From: Halomarina pelagica
GTDB lineage: Archaea; Halobacteriota; Halobacteria; Halobacteriales; Haloarculaceae
Direction: 5' to 3'
NCBI RefSeq assembly: GCF_024228315.1
Contig: NZ_CP100454.1
Span: forward strand, 1,302,001-1,366,000
DNA: 64,000 nt
The notes beneath the pieces are model-generated. The model saw only the letters and a program-made list of their open reading frames with translations. It was not told where the DNA came from and searched no databases. Position 1 is the stretch's first letter; every line of letters begins with the position of its first letter. Below, in pieces: positions 22,775 to 28,544 of the stretch. A program made the position numbers and the translations under genes.

Positions 22775-22965
22775 GGGCGGAGGTGTGTCACGGGCCGGGA
22801 ATAGTGCTTCTATACCGTCGGCCGTCGCGTCGGCTCTCGCGCAACGGTACGGCTGACGTGATCTGCGAGACGTATGCGCGACCCCGGTCGCGCGTTCGCG
22901 TCGAACGCACGTTCCGAAGCGACGACGACGTTCTCCACGCGGTGACGTACACGAAAATTGTCGGC

Positions 22966-22975
22966 AAATTATATC
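22966..22975 (+). promoter_or_regulatory. Candidate TATA box of the 2-oxoacid dehydrogenase locus
   Basis: AAATTATATC lies 30 bp upstream of the E1alpha ATG at 23006, inside the most A/T-rich part of the intergenic region (22950-22980). This predicts a transcript with a very short leader for the E1alpha-E1beta-AcoX group. Confidence 0.65.
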
Positions 22976-23005
22976 CCCTCGTGCTCGAACCTCTCAAACT
23001 GTTGT

Positions 23006-24040
23006 ATGGTAGCAATTGACATCGAAACGGAGGACGGTCGGCGCGAGGCGCTCCGTCGGATGCTCACGATACGGGCGTTCGACAGCGCGGCATCCGACCT
23101 CTTCGCCGACGGGGAGATACCGGGGTTCGTCCACCTCTACATCGGCGAGGAGGCGGTGGCGACGGGCGCGTGCGCCGCCCTCGAGGAGCAGGACTACATA
23201 ACCAGCACGCACCGCGGGCACGGTCACTGCATCGCGAAGGGGCTCGACCCGACGTTCATGATGGCCGAGCTGTACGGCAAGCGCGACGGCTACTGTAACG
23301 GCAAGGGCGGATCGATGCACATCGCCGACGTGGACGCCGGGATGCTGGGCGCGAACGGCATCGTCGGCGCGGGCCCGCCGCTCGCGACGGGTGCGGCACT
23401 CACGGCGCAGCTGAAGGGCGAGGACCGCATCGCGCTCGCGTTCTTCGGCGACGGCGCGGTGGCGCAGGGGCAGGTCCACGAGGCGATCAACCTCGCCGCG
23501 ACGTGGGACCTCCCGGCCATCTTCCTCGTCGAGAACAACCAGTTCGGCGAGGGGACGCCGGTCGACGAGCAGCACAACGTGCAGGCGCTCTCCGAGACCG
23601 CGGAGGCCTACGACATCCCCGGGTTCAGCATCGACGGAATGGACGTCACGGCGGTGTACGAGGCCGTCGGCGAGGCACGAGAGCGCGCCGCGAGCGGGGC
23701 TGGACCGACGTTCATCGAAGCCGAGACGTACCGCTTCCGGGGGCACTTCGAGGGCGACCAGCAGCCCTACCGCGAGGAGGAGGACGTGGCCGTCTGGCGC
23801 GACCGCGACCCCGTCGAGTCGTTCAAGGCCCGACTCGTCGAGCGCGGCGAGTTGACCGACGAGGAGTTCGAGGCGATGCGCGAGTCGGCCGACGAGGAGA
23901 TCGAGGAGGCGGTCGAGTACGCGCGAGACGCCGCCGACCCCGCGCCGGAGGAGGCCTACGACGACATGTTCGCGACAGTCGTCCCGGAGATCGAACAGTT
24001 CGCGGCCCGAATGCGCGCCGACGGGGGCGCGGAGCGATAG
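23006..24040 (+). CDS. acoA: Thiamine-dependent dehydrogenase E1 alpha subunit (acetoin/2-oxoacid dehydrogenase)
   Basis: The alpha chain of an E1 component binds thiamine pyrophosphate and decarboxylates acetoin, pyruvate or another 2-oxoacid. The TPP motif begins GDG (148-150) and closes with NN at 177-178. THRGHGHCIAKG (68-79) and NGKGGSMHI (98-106) are strongly like AcoA. Start ATG 23006 is chosen over a frame-open start 16 codons upstream because a TATA box lies between them. Length 344 aa. It is followed after 3 bp by E1beta. The AcoX-like neighbour favours acetoin as substrate over pyruvate; branched-chain or pyruvate dehydrogenase is the alternative. Confidence 0.88.
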   Translation: MVAIDIETEDGRREALRRMLTIRAFDSAASDLFADGEIPGFVHLYIGEEAVATGACAALEEQDYITSTHRGHGHCIAKGLDPTFMMAELYGKRDGYCNGKGGSMHIADVDAGMLGANGIVGAGPPLATGAALTAQLKGEDRIALAFFGDGAVAQGQVHEAINLAATWDLPAIFLVENNQFGEGTPVDEQHNVQALSETAEAYDIPGFSIDGMDVTAVYEAVGEARERAASGAGPTFIEAETYRFRGHFEGDQQPYREEEDVAVWRDRDPVESFKARLVERGELTDEEFEAMRESADEEIEEAVEYARDAADPAPEEAYDDMFATVVPEIEQFAARMRADGGAER

Positions 24041-24043
24041 ACC

Positions 24044-25054
24044 ATGAGCACCGAGACAGGCACCAGTTACGACGTGGACCAGACCCGCACGATGACCATG
24101 CGCGAGGCGATACGCGAGGCGATACGCGAGGAACTCGCCCGCGACGACGACGTCTTCCTCATGGGCGAGGACGTGGGGCGCTTCGGCGGCGTCCTCGAGG
24201 TGACCGCGGGCCTCCTGGACGAGTTCGGCGACGATCGCGTCCGCGACACGCCGATCAGCGAGGCGGGCTTCATGGGCGCGGGTATCGGGGCGGCGGCGAC
24301 GGGAACCCGTCCGGTCGTCGAGATCATGTTCAGCGACTTCCTCGGCGTCTGCTCCGAACAGGTGATGAACCAGATGGCGAAGATGCGCTACATGTTCGGC
24401 GGTAAGACGGAGATGCCGATCACCGTCCGCACGACCGAGGGCGGCGGGATGGGGGCCGCGAGCCAGCACTCCGGCACCGTCCACACCTGGTTCGCGCACT
24501 TCCCCGGCCTGCTCGCGGTGACGCCGGGCACCCCGGCGGCCGCGAAGGGGCTGCTCAAGAGCGCCATCCGCTCCGACGACCCCGTGTTCTTCTTCGAGAA
24601 CAAGATGACCTACGAGCAGCAGGGCGAGGTCCCGGTCGACGAGGACTTCACGCTCCCGCTGGGCGAGGCCCGCGTCGAGCGCGAGGGCGACGACGTCACC
24701 GTCGTCGCCAGCCAGCGCCTCGTCGGCGAGTCGCTCGACGTGGCCGAGGACCTGGCGGGCGACGTGAGCGTCGAGGTGATCGACGTGCGGTCGCTCTACC
24801 CGCTCGACACGGACACGCTCGTCGGGAGCCTGGAGAAGACCGGGCGGATGGTGGTCGCCGACGAGAGTCCGCTCTCCTACGGCGTCCACGCCGAGGTGAT
24901 GGCGCGGATGATGGAGAACGCGTTCTTCAGCCTCGACGCGCCCATCCAGCGCGTCGGCGTGCCCGACACCCACATCCCGTTCAGCCCCGCGCTTGAGGGG
25001 GAGGTCCTGCCGAGCGCCGACGACGTCAGAACGGCCGTCGAGCGCATCGCCTAG
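24044..25054 (+). CDS. acoB: Thiamine-dependent dehydrogenase E1 beta subunit
   Basis: Partner of the E1 alpha chain; it helps to form the TPP site and binds E2. The transketolase pyrimidine domain covers about 10-185 and includes MGEDVGRFGG and the DTPISEAGFMGAGIGAA segment with the Glu that activates TPP. The C-terminal transketolase domain runs from about 200, with VEVIDVRSLYPLD. A 12-bp direct repeat (24103-24130) encodes REAIREAIREE at residues 21-31. Length 336 aa, 3 bp after E1alpha and 1 bp before the AcoX-like gene. Confidence 0.92.
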   Translation: MSTETGTSYDVDQTRTMTMREAIREAIREELARDDDVFLMGEDVGRFGGVLEVTAGLLDEFGDDRVRDTPISEAGFMGAGIGAAATGTRPVVEIMFSDFLGVCSEQVMNQMAKMRYMFGGKTEMPITVRTTEGGGMGAASQHSGTVHTWFAHFPGLLAVTPGTPAAAKGLLKSAIRSDDPVFFFENKMTYEQQGEVPVDEDFTLPLGEARVEREGDDVTVVASQRLVGESLDVAEDLAGDVSVEVIDVRSLYPLDTDTLVGSLEKTGRMVVADESPLSYGVHAEVMARMMENAFFSLDAPIQRVGVPDTHIPFSPALEGEVLPSADDVRTAVERIA

Positions 25055-25055
25055 C

Positions 25056-26057
25056 GTGGCGACCGTTGGACTGGTCGTCAACCCGTCGGCGGGCCGCGAC
25101 ATCCGGCGGCTCACCGGCGGAGCCAGCGTCAGCGACCGCTACGCGAAGGTGCAGACCGCCCGATGCGTCCTCGCCGGGCTGACGACGATCGATCCCCCGC
25201 CGGACGTGCTCGTGATGCCGGACAAGGCGAACGTCGGCCAGGGACTGGTCGAGGAGGCCGTCGAGGCCGGGGAGATCGACGCCGCGCTCCTCGATCAGTC
25301 CGTCACGGGGTCGGGGGAGGACACCCGAAGAGCGGCCGACGCGCTCTGCGAGCGCGCCGACGCGGTGGTCGTCCTCGGCGGCGACGGGACGAACCGCGAC
25401 GTGGCGACCGGGATCGGCGACGTACCCGTGGCGAGCATCTCGACGGGGACGAACAACGTCGTCCCGACGGCCATCGACGGCACGCCGGCCGGTGCGGCCG
25501 CCGCCCTCGTGGCCACGGGACGCGTGCCCGCGGCGGACGTGACGGTGCGCCACGGCACGGTCGTCGCCGCAGTCGACGACAACGGCGGGCACCGCCGGTT
25601 CGAGGGGCTCGCCGCGCTGTCGGTGCTCGACCGCCCGTTCGTCGGCACGCGGGCCGTCCTTGACCCGGGGGACTTCCTCGGGGGCGTCGTCTCGCGCGCC
25701 TCGCCGGGAGACGTGGGGCTCTCCGGGGTCGCCGGGACGCTCGGCGCGATCGCGCCGGACGACCCCGGTGGTGCGGGACTGCGACTCGGACCGCCGGACG
25801 ACGCTCCCCGGACCGTCCGGGCGATGACGACGCCGGGCGTGGTCGGGCGCATCGGCGTGCGCGAGCACCGCCGCCTCGACGACGGCGAGGCGATGACCTT
25901 CGACGTGCCCGAAGGCGTGCTGAGCGCCGACGGGGAGCGCGAACTGGAGGTGCACGACGCGCACGTGGAGGTCCGCCCGCGCCCCGATGGCCCGCGGTTC
26001 GTCGACTTCGACGCCGTCTTCGAGCGCGCCGCGGACGAGGGGCTGTTCGTCGAGTGA
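25056..26057 (+). CDS. AcoX-like ATP-NAD kinase family protein
   Basis: Carries the ATP-NAD kinase fold: the start VGLVVNPSAGRDIRRL and the nucleotide motif VVVLGGDGTNRD (near residue 110) are the typical pair. In bacteria the acetoin clusters contain acoX, a member of this superfamily with unproven function. The GTG at 25056 follows the E1beta stop by one base and gives the conserved N-terminus; in-frame codons further upstream overlap E1beta. Length 333 aa. The protein may phosphorylate NAD or a related small molecule, or may be a regulator; neither is shown by the sequence. Confidence 0.8.
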   Translation: MATVGLVVNPSAGRDIRRLTGGASVSDRYAKVQTARCVLAGLTTIDPPPDVLVMPDKANVGQGLVEEAVEAGEIDAALLDQSVTGSGEDTRRAADALCERADAVVVLGGDGTNRDVATGIGDVPVASISTGTNNVVPTAIDGTPAGAAAALVATGRVPAADVTVRHGTVVAAVDDNGGHRRFEGLAALSVLDRPFVGTRAVLDPGDFLGGVVSRASPGDVGLSGVAGTLGAIAPDDPGGAGLRLGPPDDAPRTVRAMTTPGVVGRIGVREHRRLDDGEAMTFDVPEGVLSADGERELEVHDAHVEVRPRPDGPRFVDFDAVFERAADEGLFVE

Positions 26058-26153: not shown

Positions 26154-26657
26154 ATGGCGACGGACATACCGCAGCTGGACGTGGAGGTACCCGAGATCAG
26201 CCAGGTCGCGTTCGTGGTCGAGGACGTCGAGGACGGGATGGACCGGTTCGGTGCCGTCCTCGGCGTCGGCCCGTGGCAGCTCTACCGGTTCGAGCCGCCG
26301 GCGCTCCACGACACGACCTACCGGGGCGAGGAGCGCGACTACTCGATGATCCTCGCGCTCGCGACGGTCGGCGACACGATGATCGAACTCATCGAGCCGC
26401 TCACGGGACCGAGCATCTACACCGAGCACCTGGAGGAGCACGGCGAGGGGTTGCACCACGTCGCCTGCTTCGCGTTCGAGGACGCGCCCTCCGTGGTCGA
26501 GGAGTTCGAGGAGGCGGGGATGCCCGTCCTTCAGAGCGGCGTCTACGAGGAGACGCCGTACTGGTACTTCGACACCGCCGAGCGGTTGAACGGGGTGATC
26601 TTCGAGACGGCGGACAACGTGGACGCGCTGCCCGAGCCGGACGGTACGTACCCCTGA
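26154..26657 (+). CDS. VOC/glyoxalase family protein, methylmalonyl-CoA epimerase-like
   Basis: A vicinal oxygen chelate fold of 167 aa with two beta-alpha-beta modules. Metal ligand positions look like Gln17 (ISQVAFVV, where the family usually has His), a mid-domain Glu in MIELIEP, the His of HHVACFAF and the Glu of VIFETAD. The replaced first ligand makes epimerase activity uncertain. It follows the AcoX-like gene after 96 bp and converges with the E2-OsmC gene, with only 6 bp between the stops. An epimerase or lyase for a CoA ester or hydroxy acid linked to this catabolic locus is plausible, but not proven. Confidence 0.75.
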   Translation: MATDIPQLDVEVPEISQVAFVVEDVEDGMDRFGAVLGVGPWQLYRFEPPALHDTTYRGEERDYSMILALATVGDTMIELIEPLTGPSIYTEHLEEHGEGLHHVACFAFEDAPSVVEEFEEAGMPVLQSGVYEETPYWYFDTAERLNGVIFETADNVDALPEPDGTYP

Positions 26658-26663
26658 GCCCGC

Positions 26664-28544
26664 TCACGCCCGTCGCCAGGAGACGCCGAGATCGACGTCG
26701 TCGTCCAGGGCGTCGACGACGTAGCAATTGCGTCGGCCGAGGTCGACGACGTGCCGGAGCGTCTCGTCGTCCGCGTCGGCGTCGAGCACCACGGTGACGT
26801 CCACCCGTTCGAGCCAGCCGCGCTCGGGCGACCCGCGCGCCCGCACGTCCACGTCGTCGAGCGGGACCTCATCCCGGTCCGCCTGCATCCGCACGGCGAG
26901 CGCGACGCAGGCCGCGAGCGAGCCGAGGAACGCGTCGACGGGCGTCGGGGCGGTGCCGCCCCCGCCGAGGTCGGCCGGCACGTCGAAGTCCCACGCGACG
27001 GGGCCGACGGAGACCGTCCCCGCCGTCCCGTCGCGCATCCGCGCGGAGACCTCGCGCTCGGGGAGATCGAGCGTCGCGGACCCCTCCGGCCGCTCGACCG
27101 CCTCGGGGAGGAGCGGCCACGGGTCCTCCAGGTGGCCGACGAGCGTCTCCAGGAAGCGCGCGGCGTCCGCGCCGTCGACGACGCGGTGGTCGAACGAGAG
27201 GTCGAGGGGGAGCACCCGCCGGACCGCGACGCCCCTCTTTCCCTCGGCCATCGGGCGGCGGTCGAGGGCGTTCACGCCGAGGATGGCGACCTGCGGCGGG
27301 TTGATCACGGGATCGAACGACTCGACGCCGAGCACGCCGAGGTTCGTGACGGTGAACGTCCCCCCCGTCAGGTCGTCCATCGAGTAGTCGCCGGCGAGCA
27401 CCCGCTCGGTGAGTTCGCGCCGCCGGTCGGCGAGGTCCGCGAGCGACGCGTTCCCCACGTCGCGCAGCACGGGCGCGATGAGGCCGGCCTCCACGTCCAC
27501 CGCGAGACAGAGGTTGTGCTCCGCGTAGAGGCGGTGGGTGTCGTCCTCGAAGTGCGCGTTGAACGCGGGGTGCTCGTCGAGCGCCGCCGAGAGCGCGATC
27601 AGCAGGATGTCGGTGAGCGAGACGTCGACGCCGAGGGCCTCGGTCGACGCCTCGCGCGCCGCGAGGAGGTCCTCCGCGTCCACGGTCCGGTGCTCGGTGA
27701 CGTGGACGGCCTCGCGGTAGCTCTCCCCGAGACGTCGGGCGATCGTTCGGCGCATCCCGTCGAACGGTCGCTCCTCGCTGAGCGTGAGGCCCTCGGGACC
27801 GGCCGCCGCCGGGGGCGATTCGGCGGCCGACTCGACGTCGTCCTCGGTGATCGACCCCTGCGGCCCCGTCCCCTCGATCGTCGCGAGGTCCACGCCCAGT
27901 TCCTCGGCGCGACGCTTCGCACGGGGGGAGGCCCTGACGTCGGCGCTCGCTCCCGCGTCGCCGCCGGCGTTCGACGCGACCGCGGTCTCGACGTCGTCCT
28001 CCGTGATCGCTCCCCCTGGACCGGTTCCGTCGATCCCCGATAGTTCCACGTCCAGTTCGTCGGCGCGCTTGCGCGCCCGCGGCGAGGCCCTGACCGACTC
28101 GGCGCGAGCGGCGCTCGATCCGTCGGCCGCGCGCTCGGACGCCGACGACGGGCCGGACGCGGCGGCCGCGGCGTCCTCGGCGGTTCCCTCGGAGGCGTCC
28201 GCCGCGGCCCCCTCGGCGGGTTTCGGTTCGGACGCCGCGGCCTCACCGTCGGCGTCCGCCTCCGTCCCCGCCCCCGCCTCCGCCTCCAGGTCCGCGATGT
28301 CCTCGTCCGATTCCGCGACGATGCCCATCGGCGTGCCGGGCGGCACCTCGTCGCCCGGCGCGAGGAACGTCGTCCGCAGGACGCCCGACTCGCGCGCGTC
28401 GACCTCGGCGGTCGTCTTCTCGGACTCGATCTCGGCGATCGCGTCGCCCTCGGTCACCGACGCTCCCTCCTCGACGCGCCACTCGAGGAGCGCGCCGCCC
28501 TCCATCTCCAGCCCGAGCTTGGGCATCCTGACGATGTACGCCAT
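26664..28544 (-). CDS. acoC: Dihydrolipoamide acyltransferase (E2) with two E3/E1-binding domains and a C-terminal OsmC domain
   Basis: E2 core of the 2-oxoacid or acetoin dehydrogenase complex. The lipoyl domain (1-77) has the lipoylation site Lys43 in ESEKTTAEV. Two tandem peripheral-subunit-binding domains follow (about 152-190 and 203-242, each RASPRA-like to TEDDVE). The acyltransferase core (255-480) has the active-site DHRVVDG (452-458, His453). Residues about 497-624 are an OsmC/Ohr-type domain with two cysteines at the expected positions: Cys546 in SLAACVALAV and Cys607 in RRNCYVVDAL. ATG 28544 gives the standard N-terminus MAYIVRMPKLG. Known biochemistry has lipoylated E2 reducing Ohr, so the fusion is functionally sensible. 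No E3 gene in the window. Confidence 0.92.
   Translation of the reverse strand: MAYIVRMPKLGLEMEGGALLEWRVEEGASVTEGDAIAEIESEKTTAEVDARESGVLRTTFLAPGDEVPPGTPMGIVAESDEDIADLEAEAGAGTEADADGEAAASEPKPAEGAAADASEGTAEDAAAAASGPSSASERAADGSSAARAESVRASPRARKRADELDVELSGIDGTGPGGAITEDDVETAVASNAGGDAGASADVRASPRAKRRAEELGVDLATIEGTGPQGSITEDDVESAAESPPAAAGPEGLTLSEERPFDGMRRTIARRLGESYREAVHVTEHRTVDAEDLLAAREASTEALGVDVSLTDILLIALSAALDEHPAFNAHFEDDTHRLYAEHNLCLAVDVEAGLIAPVLRDVGNASLADLADRRRELTERVLAGDYSMDDLTGGTFTVTNLGVLGVESFDPVINPPQVAILGVNALDRRPMAEGKRGVAVRRVLPLDLSFDHRVVDGADAARFLETLVGHLEDPWPLLPEAVERPEGSATLDLPEREVSARMRDGTAGTVSVGPVAWDFDVPADLGGGGTAPTPVDAFLGSLAACVALAVRMQADRDEVPLDDVDVRARGSPERGWLERVDVTVVLDADADDETLRHVVDLGRRNCYVVDALDDDVDLGVSWRRA

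What the first reader, a model, noticed from the sequence alone, without database searches (positions are those of the whole stretch)
26664..28544. E2 acyltransferase fused to an OsmC/Ohr-type domain
A full lipoyl-PSBD-PSBD-catalytic E2 carries a 130-residue OsmC domain at its C-terminus with both expected cysteines (Cys546, Cys607). Ohr/OsmC peroxidases are known to be reduced by dihydrolipoamide on E2 enzymes, so the fusion would place peroxidase and reductant on one chain: organic peroxide detoxification linked to the 2-oxoacid or acetoin dehydrogenase. The stop at 26664 is well separated, and I see no break between the domains.
Basis: partly seen in the sequence, partly recalled or inferred. 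Interest (0 to 1): 0.8.

Follow-up and report, generated by a model that had tools for sequence, protein, structure and literature searches.

The report
Haloarchaeal E2 acyltransferase with fused OsmC domain
In many salt-loving archaea the lipoyl-carrying core enzyme of a dehydrogenase complex ends in a redox domain of a type that such lipoyl groups keep reduced in other organisms; the joint protein is real and conserved, but several species dropped the enzyme and kept the redox domain, so that domain must also have a job of its own.

Summary
Window 26664-28544 (-) encodes one 626-aa protein: lipoyl, two E3-binding domains, acyltransferase, OsmC, with Cys546 and Cys607. It is not a one-off: about 43 of 392 sampled Halobacteriales genomes, in five families, carry the fusion, mostly beside E1-alpha, E1-beta and an AcoX-like gene. 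The lipoyl lysine is kept in all but one fused protein examined, and both cysteines are invariant in 62 aligned OsmC domains.

Ohr and OsmC are known to be reduced by lipoylated E2, so a dihydrolipoyl-to-OsmC relay on one chain is the leading model. But the domain lacks the Ohr catalytic Arg and Glu and resembles YhfA-type members, whose activity is unknown. At least five lineages lost E1, AcoX and acyltransferase and kept a shortened lipoyl-relic-OsmC gene at the same site; each lost the lipoyl lysine but kept both cysteines. Other genomes have the complex without OsmC, or OsmC as a separate neighbour. OsmC therefore has a function that does not need its own chain's lipoyl group.

No published description was found in the held library. 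Real, conserved, new variant; peroxidase activity unproven.

The parts
28260..28544 (-). Lipoyl domain of the E2, about residues 1-95; lipoyl lysine K43 in the motif EIESEKTTAEV
   Evidence: Pfam Biotin_lipoyl 5-74; ESEK intact in fused homologues; model
27816..28085 (-). Two peripheral-subunit (E3) binding domains, about residues 154-193 and 203-243
   Evidence: Pfam E3_binding, two stretches; helices 155-193 and 207-242
27105..27794 (-). Acyltransferase catalytic domain, about residues 251-480, catalytic motif DHRVVDG (H453, D457)
   Evidence: Pfam 2-oxoacid_dh 257-478; motif conserved in the fused proteins
26667..27050 (-). OsmC domain, about residues 499-626, with C546 and C607; preceded by a flexible linker 489-499
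   Evidence: Pfam OsmC 528-619; AlphaFold pLDDT 93.7; C546, C607, P535, P573 invariant in 62 domains
26664..28544 (-). Whole E2-OsmC gene, 626 aa plus stop
   Evidence: translation; conserved as one frame in homologues
22958..24040 (+). E1-alpha (thiamine-diphosphate dehydrogenase), conserved partner
   Evidence: Pfam E1_dh 4e-93; synteny
24044..25054 (+). E1-beta, conserved partner
   Evidence: Pfam Transket_pyr and Transketolase_C; synteny
25056..26057 (+). AcoX-like protein of the NAD-kinase superfamily, conserved partner
   Evidence: Pfam NAD_kinase 4.7e-10; AcoX found in 35 of 43 fused genomes and 0 of 9 E2-less ones
26154..26657 (+). VOC (glyoxalase superfamily) protein, convergent with the E2-OsmC gene; optional partner
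   Evidence: Pfam Glyoxalase_4 1.6e-17, weak similarity to methylmalonyl-CoA epimerase; present in some fused clusters only

Best explanation
The gene encodes the E2 core of an AcoX-associated, acetoin/2-oxoacid-dehydrogenase-like complex whose C-terminus carries a dithiol OsmC domain. Most likely mechanism: Cys546 in the domain's central helix is oxidised by a peroxide or other thiol oxidant, forms a disulphide with Cys607, and the mobile dihydrolipoyl arm on K43 (charged by E1 with substrate, or by E3 bound at the PSBDs running backwards from NADH) reduces that disulphide. The complex would thus carry its own lipoyl-dependent thiol oxidoreductase, probably a protective peroxidase. Shown: the fusion, its conservation, the intact residues, the gene cluster. 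Inferred: dimer assembly, disulphide cycle, electron donor, substrate. The OsmC part can also work without its own lipoyl arm, presumably reduced in trans, since several lineages kept it alone.
For: Fused proteins with lipoyl lysine, acyltransferase His and both cysteines intact in divergent haloarchaea; C546 and C607 invariant in 62 domains down to 30% identity. OsmC fold with a confident model, the matches including 6ebg, an Ohr C60S mutant whose entry title says it interacts with dihydrolipoamide. Published: oxidised Ohr is regenerated by Lpd/SucB, better than by thioredoxin (PMC4486171), and OsmC is also reduced by lipoyl systems (PMC8945050). The own genome has E3-type reductase, LplA/LipB-family and LipA genes. 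OsmC is under purifying selection (dN/dS about 0.13-0.26). The linker 489-499 is predicted flexible.
Against: The Ohr catalytic Arg and Glu are absent (Thr507, Val536), as in YhfA, whose activity is unknown (PMC8945050). E2-less lineages lost the lipoyl lysine but kept OsmC. 37 AcoX-positive genomes have no OsmC of this family, so the complex does not need it. No expression or biochemical data.
Confidence: 0.5

Rival explanations
1. The OsmC domain is a self-contained thiol protein with its own job, reduced in trans by any lipoylated protein or by another thiol system. Fusion to E2 gives co-expression and tethering, not an obligatory on-chain relay.
For: At least five independent E2-less derivatives keep both cysteines and purifying selection on OsmC but lost K43 and the E1/AcoX genes, at the same genomic site where flanks could be compared. 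LipA was found in 7 of 8 E2-less genomes searched, so lipoylated proteins probably remain available. OsmC is a separate neighbouring gene in the genus of G269/G278/G352/G391.
Against: Where the chain is complete the lipoyl lysine is kept, and the fusion persists over large divergence and several E1 types; but E2 needs its lipoyl anyway, so this does not discriminate strongly.
Confidence: 0.3
2. The OsmC domain is not a peroxidase. As a YhfA-like dithiol domain it exchanges thiols with the lipoyl arm or its acyl-thioester, for example as an alternative electron acceptor, a thiol transfer site or a sensor that tunes the complex.
For: No Ohr Arg/Glu; Asp537 and Arg605 near the two cysteines are nearly invariant in this family. 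In some AcoX-type clusters the E2 keeps the lipoyl lysine but has lost the acyltransferase motif, so not all these complexes pass acyl groups to CoA.
Against: No direct evidence; the E2-less forms argue against a role tied to the complex.
Confidence: 0.15
3. The fusion is an assembly, gene-calling or read-through artefact.
For: Only the MAG G003 shows the domains in different frames.
Against: One open frame in about 50 distinct sequences, including single-contig genomes; G003 also has frame breaks in E1-alpha and AcoX, which suggests sequence errors there.
Confidence: 0.02

Closest known systems
Ohr/OsmC lipoyl-dependent thiol peroxidases (Ohr of Xylella and Corynebacterium, E. coli OsmC)
   Same: Same fold, two cysteines in the same positions; partner is a lipoylated E2/E3 system (PMC4486171, PMC8945050)
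   Different: Those are free proteins; here the domain is fused to the E2 and lacks the Ohr catalytic Arg and Glu
YhfA subfamily (PDB 1ml8) and other OsmC-like proteins such as 2onf (Ta0195, Thermoplasma)
   Same: Fold (1ml8 rmsd 2.0; 2onf best Foldseek hit); YhfA has two cysteines and no Ohr Arg/Glu
   Different: Free proteins of unknown activity; here part of a dehydrogenase core
Acetoin dehydrogenase (AcoABC with AcoX) and haloarchaeal 2-oxoacid dehydrogenases such as HVO_0669/0668
   Same: E1-alpha, E1-beta, AcoX, E2 gene set. PMC8305020 lists HVO_0669/0668 as 54%/47% identical to Bacillus AcoA/AcoB with no substrate identified
   Different: I found no description of an OsmC domain on their E2; orthology of the window's genes to HVO_0669/0668 was not tested
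Bifunctional alpha/beta hydrolase-OsmC proteins (plasmid annotations)
   Same: OsmC domain fused to another enzyme domain
   Different: Partner is a hydrolase, not a lipoyl enzyme

Membership tests
2-oxoacid dehydrogenase E2 acyltransferase | Lipoyl domain with lipoylatable lysine | tested here: met
   Pfam 5-74, ESEK K43; lipoylation itself not shown
2-oxoacid dehydrogenase E2 acyltransferase | E3-binding domain and catalytic domain with HxxxDG | tested here: met
   Pfam E3_binding x2, 2-oxoacid_dh; DHRVVDG intact
OsmC/Ohr superfamily (PF02566) | Profile match above curated cut-off and fold | tested here: met
   55.1 bits against cut-off 27.5; Foldseek query TM about 0.7-0.84 for the listed hits
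OsmC/Ohr superfamily (PF02566) | Peroxidatic and resolving cysteine positions | tested here: met
   C546 and C607 invariant in 62 domains
Ohr subfamily | Catalytic Arg (Arg19 in X. fastidiosa Ohr) and Glu (Glu51) | tested here: not met
   Aligned residues are Thr507 and Val536; in the family 507 is mostly Met/Leu (Arg in 4 of 62) and 536 is Val/Ile/Pro
YhfA subfamily | Two cysteines without the Arg/Glu pair | tested here: inconclusive
   The stated features fit (definition from PMC8945050), but no tree with reference Ohr, OsmC and YhfA sequences was made, and OsmC-type Arg placement in the Gly-rich loop was judged by eye only
Lipoyl-dependent peroxidase | Hydroperoxide reduction with a dihydrolipoyl donor | not testable with these tools
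   Needs an enzyme assay
Acetoin dehydrogenase | Acetoin as E1 substrate | not testable with these tools
   Only gene content (E1, AcoX-like) was seen

The most novel reading that the evidence does not exclude
The OsmC domain is the complex's own terminal electron acceptor: the dihydrolipoyl arm charged by E1 is re-oxidised by OsmC with an organic peroxide or another oxidant instead of by E3 and NAD, making the dehydrogenase a peroxide-consuming machine; where the dehydrogenase was later lost, the domain was re-used with another donor.
Probability: 0.12. Interest if true: 0.85.

Novelty: new variant of a known kind. Interest (0 to 1): 0.6.

Why it matters
It puts a putative redox enzyme and its known type of reductant on one polypeptide, giving a natural construct to test lipoyl-dependent peroxidase chemistry and the unknown function of YhfA-like OsmC proteins. 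The fused, split, OsmC-less and E2-less versions in related haloarchaea form a ready comparative series, and the substrates of most haloarchaeal dehydrogenases of this kind are an open question (PMC8305020).

Tried and rejected
Artefact (frameshift or read-through): rejected, one frame in many genomes. Ohr membership: rejected on the Arg/Glu positions. Fusion outside Halobacteriales: none recognised in 295 genomes sampled over the phylum; hits outside the order were mostly short frames, and one 553-aa frame (G598) was not examined. Bacterial plasmids: only partial OsmC matches, several in hydrolase-OsmC proteins; bacterial chromosomes were not surveyed. The E2-less proteins first looked like a minimal lipoyl-OsmC relay supporting the model, but their lipoyl lysine is gone, so they count against an obligatory on-chain relay. 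Three paper calls failed on a too-short term.

Full report
Observation. The minus-strand frame 28544-26664 encodes 626 aa without interruption. Pfam gives lipoyl, two E3-binding, acyltransferase and OsmC domains, all above curated cut-offs, OsmC at E=1.1e-14. Cysteines are at 346, 546 and 607. The OsmC domain folds confidently in AlphaFold (pLDDT 93.7) and matches OsmC/Ohr/YhfA structures. The full-length model shows folded modules with low-confidence linkers, one of them at 489-499 before OsmC.

Setting. The gene is convergent with a run of E1-alpha, E1-beta, an AcoX-like protein of the NAD-kinase superfamily and a VOC protein and divergent from an isocitrate/isopropylmalate dehydrogenase-family gene. 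The own genome has E3-type reductase, LplA/LipB-family and LipA genes, so lipoylation is plausible.

Distribution. An OsmC-domain profile search of 392 Halobacteriales genomes gave 43 genomes with the hit in a fused E2 frame, 9 with an E2-less form and 4 with a separate OsmC gene beside the cluster. These counts were compiled by hand; most fused frames were checked by locating the E2 domain in the same frame. They span five families (f1, f4, f7, f12, f14 in the tool's labels). AcoX occurs in 35 of the 43 fused genomes against 41 of the other 349 (Fisher p = 3e-21, not corrected for relatedness). The fusion also occurs with other, more divergent E1 types (G261, G386, G234, G366). No fusion was recognised outside the order in a 295-genome phylum sample.

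Residues. In the fused proteins the lipoyl motif is ESEK or EAEK, except G114 where the lysine is lost; the acyltransferase motif reads DHR..DG, with Asn for the Asp in G366 (second copy) and G234. In 62 OsmC domains, down to 30% identity, only P535, C546, P573 and C607 are invariant; D537 (otherwise Glu) and R605 (59 of 62) are nearly so. The positions of the Ohr Arg and Glu hold Thr507 and Val536; in the family, position 507 is Arg in only 4 of 62 and position 536 is never Glu. PMC8945050 describes YhfA proteins as having the two cysteines but lacking these Arg and Glu, with properties still to be investigated.

Evolution. In a tree of the acyltransferase domain the fused state needs six changes, at least three forced by well-supported branches; one old fusion with several losses would fit, and so would more than one fusion. 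In the OsmC tree the E2-less forms need five changes, all five forced by supported branches. Where flanks could be compared the E2-less genes lie at the same site as the fused ones: the same 2-oxoacid:ferredoxin oxidoreductase-type gene on one side and the PHP-domain gene on the other in Natrialbaceae, and the same ATP synthase gene for G226 and G351. None of the nine genomes has AcoX. Each has lost the lipoyl lysine and kept both cysteines. OsmC evolves under similar constraint in fused and E2-less forms (dN/dS about 0.13-0.26), while the lipoyl relic is less conserved than OsmC in the E2-less pairs and at least as conserved as OsmC in the fused pairs. The direction, deletion from fused ancestors, is inferred from the nesting and from the relic. 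G114, with E2 and OsmC but a lysine-less lipoyl domain and no AcoX, looks like an intermediate.

Interpretation. Published biochemistry shows Ohr regenerated by Lpd/SucB (PMC4486171) and OsmC by lipoyl systems (PMC8945050). The simplest reading is that the swinging dihydrolipoyl arm reduces a C546-C607 disulphide in the tethered OsmC domain. This is inference. So the coupling may be useful but is not obligatory, and the peroxidase label is not established.

Prior knowledge. No paper found in the held open library describes an E2-OsmC fusion. Subscription journals and database architecture lists were not checked, so automatic annotations may already list the domain combination.

Limits.

Noticed in passing
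L092:11413-12945(-), L125:10784-12280(-), L014, L016, L017, L018: AcoX-type clusters whose E2 keeps the lipoyl domain but has lost the acyltransferase motif (e.g. YDARAIGG or YDTRxLG in place of DHRxxDG): apparently complexes without acyl transfer to CoA.
   Followed up: partly
L093-L101 (E2-less forms): Lipoyl-domain relic without lysine fused in frame to an intact OsmC, at least five independent times, with E1, AcoX and acyltransferase gone.
   Followed up: yes
L092:7665-8249(-), L125:7042-7626(-), L154:8159-8743(-): OsmC as a separate 195-aa frame beside E1-alpha (next to VOC in L092 and L154) in one genus.
   Followed up: partly
L115:7315-7982: Truncated VOC and OsmC remnants side by side at a second site in G355, which also has a full fused copy.
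   Followed up: no
window 26154-26657: VOC protein convergent with the E2-OsmC gene with only a few bases between the stops; present in part of the fused clusters, function unknown.
   Followed up: partly
L034:5405-7672(+): E1-alpha and E1-beta in one 756-aa frame in G049; similar in G366 (L118:5542-7668).
   Followed up: no
L123:2358-3295: AcoX-like fragments in three frames in G293, looking like a decayed AcoX gene.
   Followed up: no
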